In this document: in pieces, positions 28,501 to 42,235 of the stretch
Layout: every line of letters starts with the position of its first letter
How positions within the stretch are numbered: position 1 is the first letter of the stretch
NCBI RefSeq assembly: GCF_003609835.1
Contig: NZ_AP017898.1
Span: forward strand, 744,001-808,000
Source: Sphingopyxis sp. FD7
Lineage (GTDB): Bacteria; Pseudomonadota; Alphaproteobacteria; Sphingomonadales; Sphingomonadaceae
Length of the DNA stretch: 64,000 bases
Reading direction: 5' to 3'
Made by a program: the position numbers and the translations under genes
The notes under the pieces: generated by a model
What the model was told of the DNA's origin: nothing
Seen by the model: only the letters and a program-made list of their open reading frames with translations
Databases searched by the model: none

Positions 28501-29833
28501 GCCGGGCTGGCGGGCTGACGCCGCAATCCAGGGGCTCGGGCGGACCAATCGCACCAATCAGGCATCGGCCCCGCTGTTCAGGCCCGTGACGACAGATGTG
28601 CGCGGCGAGCGTCGCTTCATCTCGACGATCGCGCGGCGTCTGGACAGCCTTGGTGCTCTGACGCGCGGGCAACGCCAGACCGGCGGCCAGAACCTCTTCG
28701 ATCCCGCCGACAATCTCGAAAGCACCTACGCCAAGGAGGCGCTCCATCGCTGGTTCGGCCTCTTGTTCACCGGCAAGCTCGAAGCGGTCAGCCTCGGGCG
28801 CTTCCAGGAGCTGACAGGCCTGCGGATCGAGGCGCCTGACGGGTCGATGGTCGATGACCTGCCGTCGATCCAGCGCTGGCTCAACCGCATCCTGGCGCTT
28901 CCCATAGCCCTGCAGAACGCGATCTTCGATGAGTTCATGGGGCTGGTCGAAGCGCGTATCGATGCCGCCCGGCAGGCTGGCACGCTCGATCTCGGCCTCG
29001 AGACCATCGCAGTCGAGGACTTCACTGTCCTGTTGGACACGCTGCTGCGCACCGATCCGGCATCGGGCGCGACGACCCATCTCCTCGAACTGGAGATCGC
29101 CAGAGCCTTGAAGCCGCTCACGTTGAAGCGGCTCGAGGAGATCCACGGCCTCACCGGGCAGCGGCAACGGCCGGTTCGAAATGCTCGCTCAGGCCGGGTT
29201 GCCTTGCTCGTGCCGGCCCGCAGTATTCTTGCTGATGACGGCACCCGCGTTTCCCGCTTCGAACTGCTGCGCCCCTTGAAGCGGACTCACATCACCGAGG
29301 ATCAGCTCGCTGAGAGCAGCTGGGAGGCAATTTCCGTCGACGTTTTCCGTGAAGCCTGGGCGGCCGAAGTTGAGGAAGCGCGGACCAGCCACAAGCGCGA
29401 GCGCCTCTATCTTGCGACGGGCCTCCTGCTGCCGGTCTGGGACAAGCTGCCTTCGGATTTCGTGAGGGTGAGCCGCATCTCGGCTGCCGATGGCCGCTCG
29501 CTCCTGGGCCGTGAGGTTCCTGTCCATTGCGTGCCCGAACTGTGCCGGGCGCTGGGACTCGAACGGGAACAGACGCTTTCCGCTGATGATGTTGTCCAGT
29601 CCGTCCTCGCGACGGGCAGAGCCATGGAATTCGCTGGCCGTGAACAGCTCATGATCAAACGCAGCTTGGTCAATGGCTCACAGCGACTTGAACTCACGGG
29701 ATGGAGTGCTGCTCGGCTCGACTGGTACAAGGCCCAAGGCTGCTTTACCGAGATCATTCGCTATCAGACCCGGCTCTTCGTACCGATCGAGGGCGCGGCG
29801 AGCGTGATTGCCAGACTGGCATCATCGGCATAG
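25592..29833 (+). CDS. Methylase-like plus Strawberry-notch helicase protein
   Basis: 1413 residues. Residues about 110-300 form a Rossmann methyltransferase-like domain (LALEPSAGTGMLAVWAA, then MNPPYSHG, the N6-adenine-type NPPY). A large Strawberry-notch (SBNO)-type ATPase follows with Walker A GDGTGAGKGRQ near 475, DEAH box FDEAHAMANAAG near 580, and a C-terminal helicase half with IQGLGRTNRTNQ. Such fusions are common on plasmids and ICEs of alphaproteobacteria; proposed roles are protection or modification of the transferred DNA. Confidence 0.88.
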   Translation: MSNTSLAFAFDPPCPPLVVTAAKAMALQLAAGSALSRSDINRIMTDHFGGTDALGAWSVRDAYAALELAQVQHLQASDQVQPTSPIDEAEQFFSGLDARIPAQTNRSDEQIEWQQFATPPRLAWLAARACALSVDELALEPSAGTGMLAVWAAKAGARLALNEISPLRRDCLTAVFPASRVTGYDAELIEELLDPAIVPSVVLMNPPYSHGIERGHDGRTGARHLRSAWNRLAPGGRLVAIMPEWFDCVRFLAGAKGPVSLRLNAAVERAFVRQGTGITTRLLVFDKAEGSNEPVAIRTNDFPQLVDLVDALPARASLEAVPEQSSLPARAPFRLVAVPRRPLPIPARITPPASAIGSLTYHSLETPARLAPQVGHYLPYRPSRIVIDGAAEHPTPLVESVAMGSIAAPMPEAVPQLPNGLVAKGLLSAAQAETLIYAASAHARDLPGRFEPEDKGCSLKASAEGQTYRQGYFLGDGTGAGKGRQVASVILDRWVRGERRHIWVSKNEALLEDARRDWAALGGLPIDIQPLASWKLGSPIAMRDGILFVTYPTLRSGRNDATRLDQILAWAGEDFDGVIVFDEAHAMANAAGGEGSRGKVKGSEQGIAGVRLQNLLPRARVLYASATGASDVNNLAYATRLGLWGPETAFANREAFVADIRDGGIAAMELVARDLKSLGLYTARALSFAGVEYEILEHCLTEDQIAIYDAYAEAWAIIHANLREALEATRIVDGETGGTLNSGAKSAALSIFEGTKQRFFAQLLLSMKLPSLLPAIDTAIADGHAVVVQLVSTAEAMLDRRLADLSDEEREALEIDLSPREYVIDYLAKSFPVRLMAVFTDENGNPRSEPMSDEYGAPVLCRSALAARDRMIEQLCALPPIATALDAIIERFGVEQVAEVTGRTRRLIVGGDGRQKLQSRSPRAHVAETQAFMDGAKRILVFSDAGGTGRSYHADLAAKNQARRVHFLLEPGWRADAAIQGLGRTNRTNQASAPLFRPVTTDVRGERRFISTIARRLDSLGALTRGQRQTGGQNLFDPADNLESTYAKEALHRWFGLLFTGKLEAVSLGRFQELTGLRIEAPDGSMVDDLPSIQRWLNRILALPIALQNAIFDEFMGLVEARIDAARQAGTLDLGLETIAVEDFTVLLDTLLRTDPASGATTHLLELEIARALKPLTLKRLEEIHGLTGQRQRPVRNARSGRVALLVPARSILADDGTRVSRFELLRPLKRTHITEDQLAESSWEAISVDVFREAWAAEVEEARTSHKRERLYLATGLLLPVWDKLPSDFVRVSRISAADGRSLLGREVPVHCVPELCRALGLEREQTLSADDVVQSVLATGRAMEFAGREQLMIKRSLVNGSQRLELTGWSAARLDWYKAQGCFTEIIRYQTRLFVPIEGAASVIARLASSA

Positions 29834-29837
29834 TTCC

Positions 29838-29873
29838 TTGCCAAATGGCATTATTCGCTGTATATGATGCCAT
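29838..29873 (+). promoter_or_regulatory. Promoter and operator of the Xre-RES pair
   Basis: TTGCCA (29838-29843) and TATATG (29861-29866) are separated by 17 bp, a near-consensus sigma-70 promoter. The inverted repeat ATGGCAT (29845-29851) and ATGCCAT (29867-29873) brackets the -10 element, as expected for autorepression by the antitoxin. GGAGA at 29876 then serves the ATG at 29887. Confidence 0.7.
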
Positions 29874-29886
29874 ATGGAGAACTGCC

Positions 29887-30300
29887 ATGCTGGCTCTGCA
29901 ACCCGTTGATACTGCCGTTACCGCCTTCCGGCCTGATCCGATTACCCAGGACGAGGCAGCTGCCATGTTCCGGGCAGTCCTCAATCTGTTCGGCAAGTGG
30001 GAGTTGACCGACGAGCAGGCGGCAACTTTGCTCGACATGCCGGTGCGCTCGTATCGCCGATGGAAGGCGGAAGGCCCCGGGCGTATTTCGCGCGATGGGC
30101 GTGCGCGCCTCTCCAATCTCATGGGCATCCACAAGGCGCTCCGGATCATCTTCTCGGAGGCGACCCGCGGGTACACTTGGATCAAGGCAGCGAATGAAGC
30201 GTTTGGCGGAGCCAGTGCGCTCGAAGTGATGCTGGGAGGCGAGCTTACCGACATCATGCGGGTGCGTCGCTACCTCGACGCCGAGCGCGGTGGCTGGTGA
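29887..30300 (+). CDS. Xre/MbcA/ParS-type antitoxin
   Basis: 137 residues. The N-terminal Xre-like helix-turn-helix spans about 20-75 (ELTDEQAATLLDMPVRSYRRW). A C-terminal toxin-binding segment follows (HKALRIIFSEATRGYTWIKAANEAFGGASALEVMLGG), the hallmark of antitoxins paired with RES toxins. The start at 29887 is set by GGAGA; an upstream ATG at 29845 lies within the promoter. Its stop overlaps the toxin GTG start (GTGA). Confidence 0.9.
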   Translation: MLALQPVDTAVTAFRPDPITQDEAAAMFRAVLNLFGKWELTDEQAATLLDMPVRSYRRWKAEGPGRISRDGRARLSNLMGIHKALRIIFSEATRGYTWIKAANEAFGGASALEVMLGGELTDIMRVRRYLDAERGGW

Positions 30301-31031
30301 GCGAAACAGCAGAAATCCCCGTTTCCAGAGTTGAGTGGAAGGGCGCTGTCAGGATCATCCGCAGTGCCTTTCCACCGATCGACCTGTTCGAAGACATCGC
30401 CGATCCCGCAGACTGGCCGCTTCTGATCTCGGCCGAGCAGAAGACCAATCCTCGCATCATGGCGACGATTGGTAATCTCGACCTCGTTCCGGTTGACCGC
30501 CGCGTCGGCGGCAACGGCGCCTCCTACCTCATGGCGCCGTTCACCCATGTCAGCATTGACCGGCCAAGCCGTTTTACTGACGGAAGTTATGGCGTGCTCT
30601 ATGTCGGGGACCGGTTCGAGACCGCGCTGTTCGAGACGATCCACCACCATGCCCGATTCATGGCACGAACCCACGAAGCGCCTGGCTGGACCTCGCAGTT
30701 CCGGGAGATCGTCATGACGGTCGATGCAGACCTGCATGATCTCCGGCCTCAGGCGGGGAAGCCGGATTCGGCGCTCGATCCCGACAGCTATGCCGCGTCT
30801 CAAGCGCTCGCGCGGCACCTTTGGGCTGCGGGATCGGACGGGATTGCTTACCCGAGCATCCGGCACCACGGCGGGGAATGCGTCGCGCTATTCTACCCGG
30901 ATTGCGCATCAAATCCGCTTCAGGGGCGGCACCTCGACTATCACTGGGATGGCGCGCGGGTTGATCTGGTTCGTGATGCGGGATCGGGCGCTGTCTTCCG
31001 GATTGTCGATTTGCCGCACGATCCCGCCTGA
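30297..31031 (+). CDS. RES-domain toxin (NAD-degrading)
   Basis: 244 residues, GTG start overlapping the antitoxin stop by 4 bp. The RES-family pattern is visible: an Arg-containing start region, GVLYVGDRFETALFET with Tyr and Glu, and a Ser/Gly-rich GIAYPSIRHHGGECVALFYPD near the end. Characterised RES toxins break down NAD+. It heads the cargo island and could act in plasmid maintenance or abortive defence. Confidence 0.9.
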   Translation: MSETAEIPVSRVEWKGAVRIIRSAFPPIDLFEDIADPADWPLLISAEQKTNPRIMATIGNLDLVPVDRRVGGNGASYLMAPFTHVSIDRPSRFTDGSYGVLYVGDRFETALFETIHHHARFMARTHEAPGWTSQFREIVMTVDADLHDLRPQAGKPDSALDPDSYAASQALARHLWAAGSDGIAYPSIRHHGGECVALFYPDCASNPLQGRHLDYHWDGARVDLVRDAGSGAVFRIVDLPHDPA

Positions 31032-31096: not shown

Positions 31097-31609
31097 TCAA
31101 ATCTGCGAAGCAGCCTTCACGAGTTTGTCGAGGGCCTTGTCCGGCGAAACTGGTCCCTTGTACAGCGGGCTACACGGTGTCTCTGCGAGCTTGGCGGAAA
31201 TCGCCAGAAGGTCGTCGTCATCACCCTTCTCATAGGCATAGGCAGCCAGCCAGAATTCGGCCTGCTTAACGAACTCATTGAGGATGCCCACGACGCTCCG
31301 GTTCGCTGTCTTTGCATATTGGGCCTTGTCCATCCGCAAGACCTCCTGAGCGATGAATTCGCTCGGGACGCCGTGCTCCTTCAGAACCAGGGCCAATTGT
31401 GCGGGGAATCTTCGAGCAAGCGTGGCCGCCGGGGCTAGCGGCATAAGCACGGGAAGCAGCGTGCGCTCAGAAACCAGCAAAGCGAGTTGCGGCTTCCACA
31501 ATATGATCGTGGCATACCAGCTGCCTAGTGCGGTTTCGCTTGCCTCAGGCGTAACAATGTCGGGTTTGATCCGATCAAGCAGCTTCTTGGTGCAATGGAG
31601 GTGGAACAT
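31097..31609 (-). CDS. DUF6933-like hypothetical protein
   Basis: 170 residues beginning MFHLHCTKKLLDRIKPDI, a start I associate with the DUF6933 family. No catalytic motif is obvious. It is mostly helical with an acidic patch (YEKGDDDDLLAIS). It is a single gene convergent with the RES toxin, with no visible partner. Its base composition is less GC-rich than the ICE backbone, in keeping with the island it sits in. Confidence 0.6.
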   Translation of the reverse strand: MFHLHCTKKLLDRIKPDIVTPEASETALGSWYATIILWKPQLALLVSERTLLPVLMPLAPAATLARRFPAQLALVLKEHGVPSEFIAQEVLRMDKAQYAKTANRSVVGILNEFVKQAEFWLAAYAYEKGDDDDLLAISAKLAETPCSPLYKGPVSPDKALDKLVKAASQI

Positions 31610-32011: not shown

Positions 32012-33259
32012 ATGACTGCAGAGATCGCAATCCTCAATCGCACGGCTGTGGCGCTCGCAGCTGATAGCATCGTGACGCTGGCGGGGCCGAGGTCATCAAA
32101 AACGTACGACTCTGCCGAGAAGATATTCCAGCTTTCACGTTTTCAGCCCATCGGGCTGATGATCTACAATAATGCGCTCTTCATGAACGCGCCGCTAGAG
32201 GTGCTTGTCCGACGATACCGCGAAAAGGTTCCCACCACCGGTTTTCAGGAGCTGGTGCAGGTCTGGCCGGCGTTCGAAACCTTCCTGCTGAATTTTAAGC
32301 GGGAGCGCGAGGATGAAGTCGAGCACTTCCAGGGCATGATTGGCGCCGAGCTTGCAGCATTCGCTGACGCGATCGTAACCCACATGTTGGAAGGCATTGG
32401 CAAGAGAAAGAAGAAGGGGGAAGAAACCGCTGCAGAATTGCTCGCACGCCGCGTTCAAGAGCGGACTGCCGAGGCTGAAGCCCGACCACTCGTTCCAGCG
32501 TTCCTCGATGACATCACGTTCGAGCAATTTACCGCGGAATATGGCGAAGAGGTGCAAAAAGCGGCCGAGGAGAGGTTCGGGCCGCTCGAAATTGAGGTAA
32601 CATCACGATTGCACGAGTCGCTTGGCCGGATGATGTTCGCAATCATCAGGTCCGATATTCGAACTGCGGCTTATACCGGTCTCGTGTTTGCCGGCTTCGG
32701 TAGTGAGGAGCTGTTCCCAACCCTGTTCGCGTTGGAGGTCGATGGTGTTTATTTCAATCGTCTTCGGACCATGAACAATCATATCGTCGATATTGATCGC
32801 CGCGGCGACACAGCGGCTGTGGTGCCCTTTGCGCAAAAAGACATGCCGGAGCGTTTCATTCTGGGCATCGACCGGCAGTTCGAGGGGGCACTTGAGAAAA
32901 TTGCGGACTCGATTGTCAGCGACGTCCTCGGACAATGCAAGGATGCGTTCGACACGGACCAGGCTGACCTGGTGCGCGTTGCGGCGGCCCGGCAGTTTAA
33001 GGACGGGCTCGACCGCTTGAAGCGCAATTCGGAGCAGACGCTCAAGACCGTCGTCAATCACATGTCCAAGAAGGAGCTTGGCGAGGTTGCGTTTTCGCTC
33101 GTCGAGTTGACATCGCGCAAGCGCCGTTACTCCACAGATATGGAGACGGTCGGTGGGCCGATCGATGTCGCGATACTGACTCGCAATGAAGGTTTCGTCT
33201 GGGTAAGGCGTAAACACTATTTCGACGCCGACCTGAACCCCCAGTATGTTCCGAAGTGA
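32012..33259 (+). CDS. Proteasome-beta/HslV-like N-terminal-nucleophile hydrolase
   Basis: 415 residues. The second ATG (32012) gives Met-Thr, and removing Met would expose Thr1 as in HslV and proteasome beta subunits. Counting from that Thr, AALAADS places Asp at position 17, the canonical Asp17, and SSKTYDSAEKIFQL supplies the Lys33-like lysine. The rest of an Ntn core follows (PIGLMIYNNALFM), and a helical charged C-terminal half of about 200 residues is extra. Peptidase activity is inferred. A 54-residue gene follows after 12 bp, and a ubiquitin-like operon begins 1.4 kb downstream on the same strand. Confidence 0.75.
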   Translation: MTAEIAILNRTAVALAADSIVTLAGPRSSKTYDSAEKIFQLSRFQPIGLMIYNNALFMNAPLEVLVRRYREKVPTTGFQELVQVWPAFETFLLNFKREREDEVEHFQGMIGAELAAFADAIVTHMLEGIGKRKKKGEETAAELLARRVQERTAEAEARPLVPAFLDDITFEQFTAEYGEEVQKAAEERFGPLEIEVTSRLHESLGRMMFAIIRSDIRTAAYTGLVFAGFGSEELFPTLFALEVDGVYFNRLRTMNNHIVDIDRRGDTAAVVPFAQKDMPERFILGIDRQFEGALEKIADSIVSDVLGQCKDAFDTDQADLVRVAAARQFKDGLDRLKRNSEQTLKTVVNHMSKKELGEVAFSLVELTSRKRRYSTDMETVGGPIDVAILTRNEGFVWVRRKHYFDADLNPQYVPK

Positions 33260-33439: not shown

Positions 33440-34051
33440 TCAGCGAGGGCGAAAGAAGCCTCTGATTGAGCTGAACGACCGAACCGCGATTTGGGCGTGG
33501 GTGTGGGTGTAGAATCCTCCACCGGGGTAGAGTTGCCCACCCTCGTGGAATAGACCTCGAACGGTGTCAAAAGGCTCAAAAATAGGGACGCCGCCTTTCG
33601 CGCGCGTTTCCTGAGCATCTGCTTCAATGTTCTCGTGCAAATGTTTGATGACTGCGCAGTCGAGATAGCGCAGCGGCTTGTCCGCCGCGCCGCCACGCAC
33701 TGCTTCCTTGTTTTCGGGAATCGGTTTTCCGGCTTTCGCAAGACCTGATTCCAGAGATCGGTAGGCATCGGCGAGTAGCTCGAGATGGCTTCGGATTGTC
33801 AGATCGAGACAATTGCCAAGCTCGATCACGGCACCTACGACCGCGCCCTTGGCATAGCGGCCGATCTTAACTCGCTCAGCGGCCCATTCCGCCGCCCGAT
33901 CTGCGTCGCCTTCCCAAAAATAGGCGCCTGGTCCGAGCCAGTCATAGTCCTTTTCGCTAGCACGCATTGGCGTGCCGGCGAAAATCGCTTCCGCAACTGC
34001 TTCGTCACACCCGTGATAGCCGAGGATGAATCCCGATCGGTGCTTGTTCAA
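33440..34051 (-). CDS. ADP-ribosyltransferase-like protein
   Basis: 203 residues. The N-terminal GYHGCDEAVAEAI (His13) and then DYDWLGPGAYFWEGD (Tyr44) followed by AAEWA match the spacing of the first two ART-fold motifs (His, Tyr) of PARP/diphtheria-type enzymes; a third acidic residue cannot be fixed by eye. The TTG start overlaps the stop of the preceding small gene (TTGA). Function is inferred: it may modify a protein, tRNA or DNA, either as a toxin or as a defence effector. Confidence 0.6.
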   Translation of the reverse strand: MNKHRSGFILGYHGCDEAVAEAIFAGTPMRASEKDYDWLGPGAYFWEGDADRAAEWAAERVKIGRYAKGAVVGAVIELGNCLDLTIRSHLELLADAYRSLESGLAKAGKPIPENKEAVRGGAADKPLRYLDCAVIKHLHENIEADAQETRAKGGVPIFEPFDTVRGLFHEGGQLYPGGGFYTHTHAQIAVRSFSSIRGFFRPR

Positions 34052-34218
34052 GCCGCATCCTCGGATTTTCCGTCACCGCCATATTGCGGCCTCAGCTTAC
34101 CATCGTCGTCCAGCAACCCCTCATCGGTGAGCCAGCGCTGCGCAAGCTCCTTGGTCTTGGTATTCTCACCAGTGCGACGCAGCAGCATGGCTTTGATCGC
34201 TTCTCGTTGCCGATCATC
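34048..34218 (-). CDS. Small protein between XRE regulator and ART-like gene
   Basis: 56 residues starting MDDRQREAIKAMLLRR and continuing with a helical stretch (ELAQRWLTDEGLLDDDGKLRPQYGG). It starts 4 bp after the XRE gene ends and its stop overlaps the ART-like start, so it is the middle gene of a tight three-gene operon. No family is recognised. A size-based guess is an antitoxin or immunity partner for the ART-like protein. Confidence 0.6.
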   Translation of the reverse strand, partial: DDRQREAIKAMLLRRTGENTKTKELAQRWLTDEGLLDDDGKLRPQYGGDGKSEDAA

Positions 34219-34222
34219 CATT

Positions 34223-34591
34223 TCACGATCCCTCCTGCTGATTCGTCCGACGCGAGCGCGCATAGGCAGCGGTGATCATCTCGATCATCGTTTCACGACT
34301 GTCGTGTGAAAGGCTATTGTCGGCGTAGAGCAAACTGGTGATCTGCGAGAGCGGTTCAGCCGGCATAATGCTCGCTCCGGGTGCGACAAACGGGTCTGCA
34401 CTTAAGCCCGACCACTGCACCAACGCAGCCAGACTATCTACGTCCGGCCGCTTGCCCTGCGCCATTCGCGTCAACGTTGACGCACTCACACCGGACTGCT
34501 CTGCGACCTGTTTCCAGTTGAGCCCGCGGGCCGTGCGCGCGCCATCGAGGGCCGCAAAAAATGCCTCACCTCGAAATTCCACCCTAGACAT
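34223..34591 (-). CDS. XRE-family transcriptional regulator
   Basis: 122 residues. The helix-turn-helix LNWKQVAEQSGVSASTLTRMAQGKRPDVDSLAALVQWSG (given here only to show the HTH span, residues about 24-62) is a textbook Cro/CI fold. The C-terminal 55 residues are helical and may sense a ligand or bind the small partner. It is divergent from the ubiquitin-like operon, with palindromic TTGCAA sites in the shared 80-bp gap, so it probably represses both directions. Confidence 0.85.
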   Translation of the reverse strand: MSRVEFRGEAFFAALDGARTARGLNWKQVAEQSGVSASTLTRMAQGKRPDVDSLAALVQWSGLSADPFVAPGASIMPAEPLSQITSLLYADNSLSHDSRETMIEMITAAYARSRRTNQQEGS

Positions 34592-34673: not shown

Positions 34674-35783
34674 ATGACGAACGCAGCTGATACCGACGCT
34701 CGCAGCGTCAACTATATCGAGGTGGCTGATCCGCGGCTCGCCTTTCGGCCAGTGGCAATTTCAGATCGCACGCCGACGGGCGACCAGATTCTGGCCGCGT
34801 GCGACGTCTCGCCTCGAGAAGACTATGTTGTCCTTCAGTGGCTTGCGTCCGGTGACCTTGAGGAGATCCGGGGCAATGAAACGGTTACGCTCAAGGGCAC
34901 CGAACCTGCCCGTTTCATCGTAGCGAAAGCTGACCGTCTCTTCCGACTCGTTTTAGATGATCGCTCGATTTCCTGGCCGCTCAAGAAGATCAGCGCTGCG
35001 GCGTTGCGGGAACTCGGCAAGATAGACCCGACCGCACGTCTCTATATCAGGCGCGAGGACGAGGCTGATGAACTGATTGCGGATGATGGGGCGGTGGCGC
35101 TTGACGACATCGGCGTCGAGAACATCTATTCTAAGCGCGAGGTTTGGAAGCTAAATGTGCAGGGGGTCGTCATCCAGTCTGAGGATCCGACGATCACCGT
35201 GCGTGCCGCATTGGTGGCGGCAGGCTTCGATCCCGAACAGGGATGGATTATCGTTCTTAAAGCCTCTGACGCGAAGCGGCAGGTGACGCTCGATGATATT
35301 ATTGATTTACGCGCGCCGGGCGTGGAAAAGTTGCGACTTACGCCACGCGAGATCAACAATGGTGAGGTGGATGAGGTGCTTCGGCGTGACTTCAGTTTGC
35401 TTCCTACAGATGAAGCGGGGCTCAATGCCCGCAATCTCGAATGGGAAACGGTCGTAGATGGCGGTCGACGCTGGTTACTCTTATCCAACTATAACCTGCC
35501 AGCTGGCTATACCATTACCGCAGCCACCATCGCTCTCGAAATTCCGCCGGCCTATCCCTCGGCGGAAATCGACATGTTCTATTGCCTGCCGCACCTTGTC
35601 CGGATCGACGGTAAGGGCATTCCTCAGACCGAAGCACGGGTGAGTATCCGCGGCCAGTTATTCCAGCGCTGGTCGCGTCATCGCGGGCCGGGGGCACCCT
35701 GGCGCCCTCATGCGGATTCAGTCCTTACCCATCTTACGCTGGTCGACGCCGCCATTCTGCGCGAAGTTGAACATGAGCATTGA
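34674..35783 (+). CDS. Triple ubiquitin-like protein fused to an E2-like domain
   Basis: 369 residues. Three beta-grasp repeats of the multiubiquitin type occupy about 16-84, 88-155 and 157-228; repeats 2 and 3 start with matching strands (RLFRLVLDDRSI, EVWKLNVQGVVI). Residues about 232-365 match prokaryotic E2 family E: IALEIPPAYPSAEIDMFYCLP, then FQRWSRH and WRPHADSVLTHL. Only Cys43 and Cys304 exist, and neither is at the usual E2 active-site position before the final helices. GGAGA precedes the ATG at 34674. The next gene starts 11 bp before its stop, so the products are made together. Confidence 0.82.
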   Translation: MTNAADTDARSVNYIEVADPRLAFRPVAISDRTPTGDQILAACDVSPREDYVVLQWLASGDLEEIRGNETVTLKGTEPARFIVAKADRLFRLVLDDRSISWPLKKISAAALRELGKIDPTARLYIRREDEADELIADDGAVALDDIGVENIYSKREVWKLNVQGVVIQSEDPTITVRAALVAAGFDPEQGWIIVLKASDAKRQVTLDDIIDLRAPGVEKLRLTPREINNGEVDEVLRRDFSLLPTDEAGLNARNLEWETVVDGGRRWLLLSNYNLPAGYTITAATIALEIPPAYPSAEIDMFYCLPHLVRIDGKGIPQTEARVSIRGQLFQRWSRHRGPGAPWRPHADSVLTHLTLVDAAILREVEHEH

Positions 35784-37158
35784 GCGAGACCTCGTCTTTC
35801 CGGGGAAGCTTTACGAGCGCATCCGCCGGCATCTGATCACTCCCGACGGCAACGAGGCAGCGGCGATCCTGTTCTGCCGCGACGCAATGCCAGTTCGTGC
35901 TCGTTTGCTCGTAATCGATGCTGTGCTCATCCCTCACGGCTTATGCGCGGACCGGCGCCCGGACTTTATCAGTTGGCCCGGCGAGTTCTTGTCGGACGCC
36001 ATAGATCGCGCTGAGGAAGAGGGATTATCGCTCATCCTCATACACTCCCATCCCGGCGGCTATTTCTCTTTCTCCAAAACGGATGACGAGAGTGACAAGC
36101 TGGCGATTGGTAGCATTTTTGGTGGTTGGTCGGGCGATGTGCCTAATGCGGGCCATGGGTCCGCGATAATGGTTGGTTCCGGCCAAATCCGCGCACGCCT
36201 CTATAACGCTGACCTCAAGTCTCGGCCAATCGGGCGTGTCATAGTTGCTGGCGACAATATCGCGATCTGGCGATCTGGAGACCCCGATGCGGCTCCACCG
36301 ATGGCCTTTGGCTCGGGAATGACCGAGCGGTTGAAGCAGCTCCACGCCTGCATCGTCGGCGTTTCTGGAACGGGATCGATTATCGCTGAGCAGGCTGCCC
36401 GGATGGGCTTCGGAAAGCTCACCCTGATCGACTTCGATCGGGTTGAGCACAAGAACCTCAACCGTATCCTCAATTCCTGTCACGCCGATGCCGATCATGG
36501 CCGTCGCAAGGTTGAGATGTTCGCCGATGCGGTCGCTCGCTTCAGACCAGATATCTCGATCACTGTCGTGCCTGAGAATATTTTCTCACGGGACGCCGTC
36601 GTCGCGGCAGCCCAGGCCGACGTGCTTTTTTCGTGCGTCGACTCGTCCGAGGGACGGCAGATCGCAGATCTGATCGCACGCGCGTTTATGATCCCCCTAA
36701 TTGATATGGGGGTGACGATCCCGACCCGACGTCTACCGAGCGGCGGAGCTGCTATCGTCGAAGTAATGGGACGTATCGACTATGTGCAGCCGCTTGGCGC
36801 GACGCTTGCTGATCGAGGAGTGTATACTCCGGCCTCGCTGCGGGCTGAGTATCTCGCTCGCATCGACCCTGAGGCATTCGCCGCTGAGCAGCGCGAGGGC
36901 TATATCAAGGGTGCGCCAGAAGAAGCGCCGTCAGTGATCGCATTGAACATGCGAGCAGCAAGCGCAGCGATGCTCGAGTGTGTCGCCCGCCTCTTCCCAT
37001 ATCGCCATGATGGTAATGGCGAATACGCCCGTACGGTTTTCGCGCTGGCGGACGGCGATGAAGAACATCGCGGCGAAGATGCTTTTGAAATTACCGACAC
37101 GCGCGACGTAGGTCGCGGGGCCGCTTCTCCCCTACTTGGCCTTCCAGCTTTAGGATAA
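35773..37158 (+). CDS. JAB deubiquitinase-like domain fused to ThiF/E1-like domain
   Basis: 461 residues. The N-terminal JAB/MPN domain has a perfect JAMM metalloprotease motif: His91-Ser-His93-Pro, six residues, Ser101, two residues, Asp104. The C-terminal E1/ThiF domain has the nucleotide loop VGVSGTGS (196-202), LTLIDFDRVEHKNLNR (Asp220/222, Asn228, Arg231) and FSCVDSSEGRQ. Where related E1s carry a Cys motif after the PG turn, this one reads PLGATLADRG (340-349), with no Cys. Expected roles are adenylating the ubiquitin-like C-terminus and processing or removing it. It overlaps the Ubl-E2 gene by 11 bp. Confidence 0.88.
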   Translation: MSIERDLVFPGKLYERIRRHLITPDGNEAAAILFCRDAMPVRARLLVIDAVLIPHGLCADRRPDFISWPGEFLSDAIDRAEEEGLSLILIHSHPGGYFSFSKTDDESDKLAIGSIFGGWSGDVPNAGHGSAIMVGSGQIRARLYNADLKSRPIGRVIVAGDNIAIWRSGDPDAAPPMAFGSGMTERLKQLHACIVGVSGTGSIIAEQAARMGFGKLTLIDFDRVEHKNLNRILNSCHADADHGRRKVEMFADAVARFRPDISITVVPENIFSRDAVVAAAQADVLFSCVDSSEGRQIADLIARAFMIPLIDMGVTIPTRRLPSGGAAIVEVMGRIDYVQPLGATLADRGVYTPASLRAEYLARIDPEAFAAEQREGYIKGAPEEAPSVIALNMRAASAAMLECVARLFPYRHDGNGEYARTVFALADGDEEHRGEDAFEITDTRDVGRGAASPLLGLPALG

Positions 37159-37162
37159 ACGC

Positions 37163-37510
37163 ATGTTCGCTGCTTTCCTGAACAAAGCCAGAAATTGGTT
37201 CCGCGGTCTTTTTCGCCCAAGACCGAAGGCCCGAGGGATCGTCTATTACGACGCCGACGAACTGCCACATGAATTGCCTGAATTCGATCTTGCTGTAGCG
37301 CGCGAGGATGGCACTCTGTGGACAGCTGGGATGCGATGCCCATGTGGTTGCGGCCGCCGACTTGAGGTTATGCTGCTTCCTGGAGTAACGCCGCGCTGGG
37401 ACCTACAAGTTGACCCCGATGGGCGTCCGACCCTTCATCCCTCGATATGGGTACAGGACGGCTGCAAAGCCCATTTCTTCCTACGATCGGGCATGGTCGA
37501 ATGGTGCTAG
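37163..37510 (+). CDS. DUF6527 zinc-binding protein of the ubiquitin-like operon
   Basis: 115 residues. A basic N-terminus (KARNWFRGLFRPRPKARG) precedes a metal site with Cys59, Cys61, Cys63, Cys101, His104 and Cys115 (RCPCGCGRRLEV ... DGCKAHFF ... EWC). The pattern matches DUF6527 proteins, which I know as neighbours of prokaryotic multiubiquitin/E1/E2 genes. Being the fourth activity of the operon and zinc-binding, it could be a ligase-like or substrate-recruiting factor; this is inference. It starts 4 bp after the JAB-E1 stop. Confidence 0.75.
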   Translation: MFAAFLNKARNWFRGLFRPRPKARGIVYYDADELPHELPEFDLAVAREDGTLWTAGMRCPCGCGRRLEVMLLPGVTPRWDLQVDPDGRPTLHPSIWVQDGCKAHFFLRSGMVEWC

Positions 37511-39889: not shown

Positions 39890-39979
39890 GGAAAGAGAGC
39901 AGAGGGGGCTCGGGACCCTGTGGCACTGAGCGGCGAAGCTGTCGCCGACTGTCCAGATGCCGCAATCAGGAGAACCATC

Positions 39980-40729
39980 ATGGCCTATCGCAAGGGGCAA
40001 GGCAGCGGCGTGTCGCCAGCCACCCGCATCACCCAGGAAATCATCGCCCGTCTGGAAGCAGGCACGAAGCCATGGATCAAGCCATGGCGCGGTGTCCCGG
40101 TCTCCCGGCCCTTGCGGGCCTGCGGAATTCCGTACCGGGGCATGAACGTGTTCTGGCTTTGGATGGTCGCCGACATGTGCGGCTACGCTTCGCCGTTCTG
40201 GATGACCTACAACCAGGCAAAATCGCTCGGAGCCCAGGTCCGCAAGGGCGAGAAATCGACCATCGCGATCTTCTACAAGAGCTACACCAAGGAGGTGGAA
40301 GCCCCCGATACTGGCGAAAAGACCGACGAGGCCCGCCGGGTGCTCAAGGCCTATCCAGTCTTCAATGCCGATCAGGTCGAAGGTCTGCCCGAGCGCTTTC
40401 ATCCGGCGGTTACGCTGGAATTGGTCGAGCCTGAAGGGCGCGAGGCCGAACTCGACGCCTTCTTCGCCGCCATCCCCGTCAATCTGCGCCACCAGGGCTC
40501 CGAGGCTTATTACGAACCGACTGCGGATCGTGTCACGATGCCGCCGACGAGCCTGTTTTCCGGCTTCGACCACTATTATGCCACGCTGGCCCACGAGCTG
40601 TCGCACTGGACCGGCCATGCCAGTCGCCTGGGGCGTGATCTCAAGAACCGCTTCGGCACGGCTGCCTATGCAGCCGAAGAACTGGTAGCCTTATCTGGAC
40701 AGTCTGCGCCGCCCGCAACATTGCAGTAA
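39980..40729 (+). pseudogene. ArdC-like antirestriction protein, 5' part (split by a mobile element)
   Basis: The first 237 codons of an ArdC-type gene: an N-terminal ssDNA-binding domain (ITQEIIARLEAGTKPWIKPW, RKGEKSTIAIFYKSY) and the start of the zincin domain with HELSH. Native sequence stops after AAEELVA at 40690, where the inverted repeat of an inserted element begins; the last 13 codons are element DNA. The missing end (AELSSAMLGAELGLP onward) is intact at 47239-47469 in the same frame. The truncated protein keeps HExxH but loses the C-terminal helices. ArdC proteins protect incoming ssDNA from restriction. Confidence 0.88.
40691..40704 (+). repeat. Left terminal inverted repeat of the trio element
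   Basis: TTATCTGGACAGTC, pairing with 47219-47232 in inverse orientation at 11 of 14 positions. ATTGCA follows 15 bp inside, and an equivalent TGCAAT lies 9 bp inside the right end. Confidence 0.75.
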
Positions 40730-40753
40730 GGTCGGCGATGGACGCCCACGGTA

Positions 40754-40817
40754 GGCAGTTATCAGGCTGGCCGTAGCGCTGACCCAAGAGCTGGCGAAGG
40801 CCAGCCTGATAACTGCC
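40754..40817. repeat. Perfect 19-bp inverted repeat near the left end of the element
   Basis: GGCAGTTATCAGGCTGGCC (40754-40772) and its exact inverted complement (40799-40817) flank 26 bp. It lies just upstream of the first recombinase gene and is probably a recombinase-binding or regulatory structure. No equivalent was seen at the right end. Confidence 0.75.
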
Positions 40818-40837
40818 GGGCCATAGGGCGCATCGGT

Positions 40838-42235
40838 GTGAGGTCAGCTTCCGGGTGGGGGGTCCGGGGGGAGGGTTTTGCGCCGGTGTCGATCATTACT
40901 GTTTGCGAGCGGCGTGAGGCCAAGGGCCTCGATGCGCATGTGCCGCTGATCCTGCACGGCGACGCGCTCTATGATCCCGATCTGGATCGCTTTTTTCTCG
41001 ACCTGCCGCTGTCGGGGGTCCGCTCCCGCCACTCGCTTCGCGCCTACGCCTATGATGTCGCGGTCTGGCTTCGCTTTCTCGATGCCTGTGGCAAGACGGT
41101 GTGGGCTGCGACCCGCGACGATGTCGACGCCTATCATCGTGAGCGACGCCGCGACGAGGCCGATCACCGGATCACGGCGGCAAGCTGGAACAGGGCCGTC
41201 GCCAGCCTCGATCGTCTCTACCGCTGGGGCGAGCAACAGGGGCTGATCGTCGAGGCGCCGTTCAGCCGCCTCGCCGTGTGGCGACCGGCGCAGGGTGGCC
41301 GTCGAGGCATGATCGCGGCGCGCAACGACGCCTATGAGCGCGTGGCCAGACGATCGGACGTGCGGTTTGTCACGATGGACGACTACCGCATTTTCCGCGA
41401 GGTCGGCCTGCGGGGTCTCGCCCCTGACGGCACGGAACGCCCCGGCGCTCGCGATCGCAACGGGCTGCGCAATGCGCTGTTCGCCGATCTTCTCGTTACC
41501 ACTGGCCTGCGTCTTGAAGAGGCGTCGGGCCTGCTCGCCGATGAACTCGCGGCCATCGACCACGACGATGGTCAGGCGGCGCAGCTTTGGCTGCGCCTGC
41601 CGCCGCCGCTCACCAAGGGCGACCGTGGACGCAGCATCCTGGTCCCGCGCCGTCTGCTTCGCCAGATCGCCGCCTATGTCGCCGTAGAGCGGACTGCGGG
41701 CGTGGCCAAGTTCGCCGCGCGCGACGGCGCGGCCAGATTCGAGCGACCGATCCCTGTCACTCGCGCCGGTTTCGACCGCATGCGCGACGTCTGCACCCCG
41801 GAGGAACGATGCCGCCTTATCCTGTGCGACGAGGATGGAACGCCCCGCGAGCCGGCGGCGCTATGGCTGACAGAGGTCGGGCAGCCTGTCCGCCCCAACT
41901 CGTGGGAGGTGATCTTCACCCGCGCCTGCAAGCGGTGTGCGGAGCACGGCTTTCCGCTGTCGATCAGCCCGCACCAGCTTCGCCACACCTTCGCGGTCCA
42001 TATGCTCGCCTTGCTGATCCAGCAGCGACTGCGCGAGGCCGCGCTGCCGGCGGGTCCGGTGGAGAGCTATCGGCTGATCCTGGGCGACCCGCTGCAACAG
42101 GTGCAACGCCTTCTCGGCCACGCGAGCCTCGCCACCACCTATATCTATCTCGATCATATCGCGACCCGCGCCGATACGGTGGATGCGGCCGTCGAGGAAC
42201 TGCTGGCGCTGTTGCCGGGACCGCAGGGCGCATGA
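40838..42235 (+). CDS. Tyrosine recombinase, first of trio
   Basis: Up to 465 residues (GTG start; a second GTG about 16 codons later is possible). It has an N-terminal SAM-like core-binding domain (SRHSLRAYAYDVAVWLRFLDACGK) and a catalytic domain. Visible catalytic residues are Arg in TTGLRLEEASG, His-x-x-Arg in SPHQLRHTF, His in LLGHASLATT and Tyr in TYIYLDHI. It corresponds to TnpA of Tn554-like trios. Its stop overlaps the next ATG. Confidence 0.9.
   Translation: MRSASGWGVRGEGFAPVSIITVCERREAKGLDAHVPLILHGDALYDPDLDRFFLDLPLSGVRSRHSLRAYAYDVAVWLRFLDACGKTVWAATRDDVDAYHRERRRDEADHRITAASWNRAVASLDRLYRWGEQQGLIVEAPFSRLAVWRPAQGGRRGMIAARNDAYERVARRSDVRFVTMDDYRIFREVGLRGLAPDGTERPGARDRNGLRNALFADLLVTTGLRLEEASGLLADELAAIDHDDGQAAQLWLRLPPPLTKGDRGRSILVPRRLLRQIAAYVAVERTAGVAKFAARDGAARFERPIPVTRAGFDRMRDVCTPEERCRLILCDEDGTPREPAALWLTEVGQPVRPNSWEVIFTRACKRCAEHGFPLSISPHQLRHTFAVHMLALLIQQRLREAALPAGPVESYRLILGDPLQQVQRLLGHASLATTYIYLDHIATRADTVDAAVEELLALLPGPQGA

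What the first reader, a model, noticed from the sequence alone, without database searches (positions are those of the whole stretch)
34674..37510. Compact bacterial ubiquitin-like conjugation operon with a triple-Ubl-E2 fusion and a JAB-E1 fusion
Seen: three overlapping or nearly touching genes encode (1) three tandem beta-grasp repeats fused to an E2-like domain, (2) a JAMM peptidase with an intact HxHPx6SxxDxxS motif fused to an E1/ThiF domain, and (3) a DUF6527 zinc protein. Known: Multi_ubiq, Prok-E2, Prok-JAB and ThiF domains form bacterial ubiquitin-like pathways, and the related BilABCD systems protect against phage. Inference: all conjugation activities are here in two polypeptides, so the E2 may be permanently tethered to its own modifier and act on itself or a nearby partner.
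Basis: partly seen in the sequence, partly recalled or inferred. Interest (0 to 1): 0.9.

Follow-up and report, generated by a model that had tools for sequence, protein, structure and literature searches.

The report
A known bacterial ubiquitin-like (Bub) operon

Summary
Three + strand genes at 34674-37510 encode three ubiquitin-like domains plus an E2-fold domain, a JAB peptidase plus an E1 domain, and a DUF6527 protein. The system is already in print: the layout is class 6e of Iyer et al. 2006, and both large proteins match solved Citrobacter structures deposited as BubA, BubB and BubCD. The locus is therefore a Bub operon, in a low-GC stretch.

Nine of ten unfused relatives of the JAB type end in a glycine, and the fusions' junction glycine, G230 here, is invariant in the 120 listed homologues and lies in a disordered linker. 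I read the fusion as a precursor cut there by the JAB domain. No conserved cysteine was found where E1 or E2 would form a thioester, whereas E1 Tyr377 is kept in 46 of 48. Phage protection by Bub had not been shown, says a 2026 paper.

Outside the given coordinates, 32012-33259 is a predicted proteasome-like hydrolase near some other Bub operons.

The parts
34674..35783 (+). BubAB: three ubiquitin-like domains plus E2-fold domain, 369 aa
   Evidence: Pfam Multi_ubiq x3 and Prok-E2_E; PDB Citrobacter BubA/BubB
34707..34937 (+). Ubl domain 1 (about residues 12-88)
   Evidence: Multi_ubiq; AlphaFold2 strands
34938..35141 (+). Ubl domain 2 (about residues 89-156)
   Evidence: Multi_ubiq; model
35142..35363 (+). 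Ubl domain 3 (residues 157-230), ending in N-N-G
   Evidence: matches PDB 9ea8_B, 'Citrobacter BubA 155-229'
35355..35363 (+). Predicted cleavage site NNG|E: N228, N229, G230
   Evidence: N229 and G230 in 120 of 120 listed homologues; pLDDT under 50 at residues 227-234; matches free C-termini of unfused relatives
35376..35774 (+). BubB, E2-fold domain (residues 235-367), without an invariant cysteine
35773..37158 (+). BubCD: JAB peptidase fused to E1, 461 aa
36043..36084 (+). JAMM motif H91, H93, S101, D104 (D104 is the residue mutated in PDB 'BubCD D104A')
   Evidence: sequence
36280..37155 (+). BubD, E1/ThiF domain (residues 170-461)
   Evidence: ThiF; structure matches
36901..36903 (+). Tyr377, equivalent of the Citrobacter residue changed in PDB 'BubCD(D104A/Y370F)-BubB-BubA(155-229)'
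   Evidence: alignment; Y in 46 of 48 E1s
37163..37510 (+). DUF6527 protein, putative metal binder, role unknown
   Evidence: PF20137; C/H conservation; after the E1 in 26 of 26 loci
34223..34591 (-). Divergent HTH regulator, CapH-like
   Evidence: HTH_3; same divergent position in 7 of 49 loci scanned; the Synechocystis relative sits beside a capP-like peptidase

Best explanation
A Bub (bacterial ubiquitination-like) operon, class 6e of Iyer et al. 2006. Shown: domains, folds, homology to solved BubA, BubB and BubCD, and operon conservation. Inferred: (1) BubAB is a precursor; the JAB (BubC) domain cuts after Gly230, freeing a tri-Ubl modifier with a C-terminal glycine and a separate BubB. 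(2) The BubD E1 domain adenylates that glycine. (3) BubB docks on BubCD and helps move the Ubl to a target without a cysteine thioester; Tyr377 of the E1, and Ser334 and other invariant polar residues of BubB, are the candidates. (4) The same JAB domain can remove the Ubl again. (5) A divergent CapH-like repressor keeps the operon silent until stress, probably DNA damage. Purpose: stress response or phage defence, target unknown. My estimates: identity as Bub 0.97; precursor cleavage 0.8; cysteine-free transfer 0.7; phage defence 0.45.
Against: The JAMM/tail association rests on the six DUF6791-type loci, which lack JAB altogether (Fisher p 0.0002 with them, 0.24 without). The loci are related, so neither p value is a true probability. 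JAMM is also kept in 9 of 10 JAB-type loci with an exposed end, so processing is not its only job. Some Ubl ends lack glycine (L074, L071, L076, L077, L079, L080, L081 end in S or A), and L072, counted as fused, shows no clear junction glycine. 19 of 120 listed homologues have some cysteine at residues 310-330 of the fusion. The paper that works out the Bub mechanism was not held, so steps 1-4 are not checked against it. No M78 (CapP-type) peptidase gene lies in the window.
Confidence: 0.8

Rival explanations
1. One reading: the E2 stays covalently joined to its Ubl repeats and modifies itself or a near partner.
For: The fusion is common: all 120 listed homologues carry both domains (the query was the fusion, and candidates are limited by length).
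Against: The Ubl C-terminus is inside the chain unless cut. Relatives with separate Ubl and E2 genes exist. The junction glycine is invariant, disordered in the model, and matches free C-termini. The JAMM site is intact in 27 of 27 classed fused loci.
Confidence: 0.08
2. The Ubl repeats act mainly by self-assembly; E1, JAB and pseudo-E2 control filament assembly instead of tagging many targets.
For: PDB 9d59 and 9d5b are titled multi-ubiquitin protein filaments and match this protein.
Against: Near-invariant E1 ATP-site residues (G201, K246 and D290 in 48 of 48, D222 in 47), and a solved BubCD-BubB-BubA complex of relatives, point to chemistry on the Ubl C-terminus. Both roles could coexist.
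Confidence: 0.15
3. Classical E1-E2 thioester cascade of Bil type, with Cys304 as the E2 active site.
For: C304 present in 96 of 120 listed fusions.
Against: C304 is V, A, S or T in the other 24 and, counting from the shared Tyr-Pro, lies well before the usual site (approximate). Iyer et al. 2006 call the domain cysteine-free and probably inactive. There is no conserved E1 cysteine after the adenylation motif.
Confidence: 0.05
4. Sulphur-carrier chemistry (ThiS/MoaD-like) instead of protein tagging.
For: The E1 domain is ThiF-related and neither protein has a conserved transthiolation cysteine.
Against: Triple Ubl, E2-fold partner and JAB; no thiamine or molybdenum-cofactor family among the 15 neighbouring window proteins given to Pfam; the deposited relatives belong to a protein-conjugation pathway by the title of Ye et al. 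2026 (title seen in a reference list).
Confidence: 0.02

Closest known systems
Bub pathway (Citrobacter BubA, BubB, BubCD; PDB 9ea4, 9ea5, 9ea8, 9eae, 9eav, 9d59)
   Same: Same domains and the same JAB-E1 fusion; about 41-50% identity over matched chains. Citrobacter BubB is numbered 234-361, following BubA 155-229, which suggests one BubAB chain there too (inference).
   Different: Other host. The Citrobacter gene neighbourhood of the PDB proteins was not examined. No functional difference shown.
Class 6e 'polyUbl' operons, Iyer et al. 2006 (PMC1779556, passages)
   Same: [quoted passage not shown] Nitrobacter hamburgensis is named and Nham_1370 is a 48% relative.
   Different: They predicted that the E2/RWD-like domain binds Ub moieties and discuss no junction cleavage in the passages seen. 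Their C-x3-C-x(35-38)-H-x2-C reads C-x3-C-x37-C-x2-H in the window protein.
Bil (BilABCD)
   Same: Ubl, E1, E2 and JAB in one operon; the Ubl repeats resemble BilA (8u38, E 4e-28).
   Different: BilB has a catalytic Cys138 and BilD a Cys domain (PMC11354881, passages); no such cysteine is conserved here.

Membership tests
Bub | Triple-Ubl BubA homologous to the solved protein | tested here: met
   E 2e-82 to 9d59_A; 44% identity over 211 residues to 9d5a
Bub | BubB E2-fold protein | tested here: met
   [not shown]
Bub | BubCD JAB-E1 fusion with JAMM Asp104 and the Y370 equivalent | tested here: met
   E 1e-195 to 9ea4; D104 and Y377 aligned
Bub | ATP-dependent conjugation of BubA to targets and removal by BubC | not testable with these tools
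   needs biochemistry
Bub | Associated DNA-damage regulator (not universal: 219 plus 59 of 544 operons have CapW, CapH+CapP or CapK+CapS per PMC13373217) | tested here: inconclusive
   Divergent HTH present; PADLOC capH only E 0.005; no M78 peptidase in the window, five elsewhere in the genome
Iyer 2006 class 6e | polyUbl, cysteine-free E2/RWD-like domain, JAB-E1, metal-binding protein in one operon | tested here: met
   the window E2 domain does carry C304, and the last two metal ligands come in the reverse order to the printed signature
Bil | Conserved catalytic cysteines in E2 and E1 | tested here: not met
   against PMC11354881
CapH+CapP regulator pair | HTH repressor with adjacent ImmA/IrrE peptidase | tested here: not met
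   HTH present; the next genes on its strand are a 57-aa ORF and an ADP-ribosyltransferase-like gene

The most novel reading that the evidence does not exclude
In this subset of Bub operons the tag feeds a proteolytic arm: the neighbouring proteasome-like Ntn hydrolase (32012-33259), or a ClpP-like gene just downstream of Bub in two Rhizobium plasmids, acts on Bub-tagged proteins. This would be a bacterial ubiquitin-and-protease pathway unrelated to Pup.
Probability: 0.07. Interest if true: 0.85.

Novelty: new member of a known kind. Interest (0 to 1): 0.28.

Why it matters
Bub shows ubiquitin-like chemistry in bacteria without an evident catalytic cysteine, bearing on how ubiquitin transfer first arose. 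This copy adds little by itself. The comparison does give two cheap tests: that BubAB is a cut precursor (cleavage after the invariant NNG), and that Tyr377, not a cysteine, is the conserved E1 residue. A proteasome-like gene beside several Bub operons is a lead for the unknown downstream step.

Tried and rejected
Rejected: permanent tether, Bil membership, thioester chemistry via C304, sulphur carrier (see rivals). Covariation of JAB with a Ubl tail: consistent, but not significant once the DUF6791-type loci are left out.

Literature: seven searches for Bub-related terms found no held full text on the Bub mechanism; look-ups of PMC12885553, PMC12145246 and PMC11476048 failed. My recollection of those abstracts was not used as evidence. 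One search for a proteasome-like/ubiquitin-like link in phage defence gave one paper, PMC8665760; in the 12 of 15 passages shown for ubiquitin, JAB, phage and similar terms I saw no link to ubiquitin-like operons.

Profile comparison of the E2 domain with a human E2 gave only 19 columns at 0.8% probability, so the position of the usual E2 cysteine (about T319, counting without gaps from the shared Tyr-Pro) is a guess. hhalign of the Ntn-like family with E. coli HslV found nothing solid; Pfam Proteasome matched 1 of 7 members at E 0.037; the archaeal proteasome match (E 0.058) is suggestive, not significant alone. The ADP-ribosyltransferase-like gene as a Bub part: 62 plasmid records carry it; of the 40 listed, 4 are records that also carry a listed Bub E1; of 6 family genomes with it, only the window's own also has Prok-E2_E. 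It is probably an independent module. The Ntn-like gene as a fixed Bub part: rejected; 15 of 308 class genomes have it, and besides the window's own only G681 is also among the Multi_ubiq genomes, on another contig (the two samples may not coincide fully).

Rows dropped: three sub-cutoff E2 hits (L017-L019) were not followed; 12 of 166 plasmid records with a BubCD-like hit were fetched by hand choice for spread, three more came in through the Ntn-like gene; L088 and L093 (E1 split over several frames) were left out, as were L102-L107 and the window. Of 480 and 1577 homologues only the 120 listed each were aligned; 66 and 55 of them went into the structure alignments, the window's own protein included.

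Full report
What is there. Three + strand genes form a tight operon at 34674-37510. Gene 1 (369 aa) has three Multi_ubiq stretches and a Prok-E2_E domain. Gene 2 (461 aa from 35773) has Prok-JAB and ThiF. Gene 3 is DUF6527. Genes 1 and 2 overlap by 11 bases and genes 2 and 3 are 4 bases apart. The genome holds one Prok-E2_E match. The six other same-genus genomes listed in the family sample have none. GC is 57-59% at 30-38 kb against 61-69% elsewhere in the window, except its last 4 kb (57-58%). An ArdC-type gene and a tyrosine-integrase gene follow at 39920-42235. This looks like a mobile island; that is inference.

Spread (counts include the window's genome). Prok-E2_E is in 9 of 398 genomes of the phylum sample (6 over cut-off), and 15 of 298 in the family. 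Multi_ubiq is in 12 of 385 of the class sample. A BubCD-like protein is in 166 of 72,556 plasmid records, 106 covering at least 80% of the query; 66 of the 166 are typed conjugative. The weakest of the 166 are other ThiF/MoeB-type proteins. No phage record covers 80% (0 of 9 with a hit). In 26 of 26 loci chosen by their fusion protein or E2 domain, the E1 and then the DUF6527 gene follow the E2; in L038 the Ubl gene comes last instead of first, and in L050 the Ubl was seen only with a wider profile. Of 11 further class loci, 8 have a DUF6527-like gene.

The junction. The Ubl and the E2 are one gene in some relatives and two in others. Of ten JAB-type loci whose Ubl has an exposed end, nine end in glycine (T-E-G, F-G or R-G) and L074 in serine; four more carry a short tail after the glycine (L037, L038, L085, L092). 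Most fused forms keep T-E-G or N-N-G at the boundary; L072 shows no clear junction glycine. In 120 listed fusions N229 and G230 never change, E231 is common (111), and the following residues vary. Residues 227-234 of the model have pLDDT under 50. PDB chain 9d59_A ends at NNG, 9ea8_B is 'BubA 155-229', and BubB is a separate chain numbered from 234. All 31 classed loci with a fusion or tail keep H-x-H...S-x2-D; with an exposed end 9 of 16 do. The contrast is carried by six loci without JAB (DUF6791-type) and vanishes without them (p 0.24). So a cut precursor is well supported by anatomy, but not by that test alone.

Chemistry. In the BubB domain the frequent cysteine, C304, is absent from 24 of 120 listed fusions. 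101 of 120 have no cysteine at residues 310-330, where the usual site should lie; 19 do have one (placement approximate). In E1, C288 (118 of 120) belongs to the C-V-D adenylation motif, and no later position is conserved as cysteine. Tyr377 is kept in 46 of 48 E1s of all types, and R231, K246 and D290 in 48 of 48. Its Citrobacter equivalent was changed to Phe in the solved ternary complex. I infer transfer without a cysteine thioester. I could not read the mechanism paper, so this may be already settled there.

Surroundings. A divergent HTH gene (34223-34591) has relatives in the same divergent position in 7 of 49 loci. In Synechocystis it lies next to a capP-like peptidase (E 2.9e-6), which is missing here; a 57-aa ORF and an ADP-ribosyltransferase-like gene follow instead, as in two Rhizobium plasmids. 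Next to these, 32012-33259 encodes a 415-aa protein. Seven aligned sequences, the window's included, share M1-T2, D18, S19 and K37. The profile's best PDB match is archaeal proteasome beta (E 0.058, not significant alone; two collinear stretches at both ends of the fold). Thr1, Asp17 and Lys33 are the proteasome triad in Fuchs et al. 2021 (PMC8665760; abstract, passages and section 3.3 read). It lies within 4 kb of a BubCD-like gene in 5 of 10 plasmid records that carry it, two of them from one species, and by Bub in L005, L006, L045, L046 and L047. In the family sample 4 of 5 genomes with a near full-length copy have both genes close together, the window's own included. It also occurs apart from Bub: no BubCD-like gene was found around it in L103, L105, L106, L108 and L109, 13 phage or satellite records carry it, and of 15 class genomes with it only the window's own and G681 appear among the Multi_ubiq genomes. 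So it is a frequent neighbour, not a fixed part.

Verdict. A real, well-preserved Bub operon; a new member of a known kind. Interest is modest.

Noticed in passing
window 32012-33259 (+): Predicted proteasome-like Ntn (Thr) hydrolase with no Pfam match of its own; it neighbours several Bub operons but also occurs apart from them, in prophage, satellite and other records.
   Followed up: partly
window 33440-34051 (-) and 34048-34221 (-): ADP-ribosyltransferase-like protein (by eye; PADLOC PD-T4-9_A E 1.4e-6) and a conserved 57-aa ORF between it and the HTH gene; same trio in Rhizobium L102 and L107.
   Followed up: partly
L102 10863-11423 and L107 12602-13210: A gene annotated as ATP-dependent Clp protease proteolytic subunit sits directly after DUF6527 in two Rhizobium plasmids.
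   Followed up: no
L071, L076, L077, L079, L080, L081: A second kind of Multi_ubiq operon: the E1 (DUF6791 domain in the two checked, L076 and L081) lacks JAB, no E2 was found with my profile, and the Ubl ends in S or A instead of G. Probably Iyer's 'domain X' class.
   Followed up: partly
window 29701-31031 (+) and 31097-31609 (-): Xre/RES toxin-antitoxin pair and a DUF6933 gene (PADLOC candidate PDC-S63, E 3.6e-13) beside the Bub operon.
   Followed up: no
E1 residues 449-461 (window 37117-37155): Conserved C-terminal tail ...PLLGLPxLG in BubCD homologues, purpose unknown.
   Followed up: no
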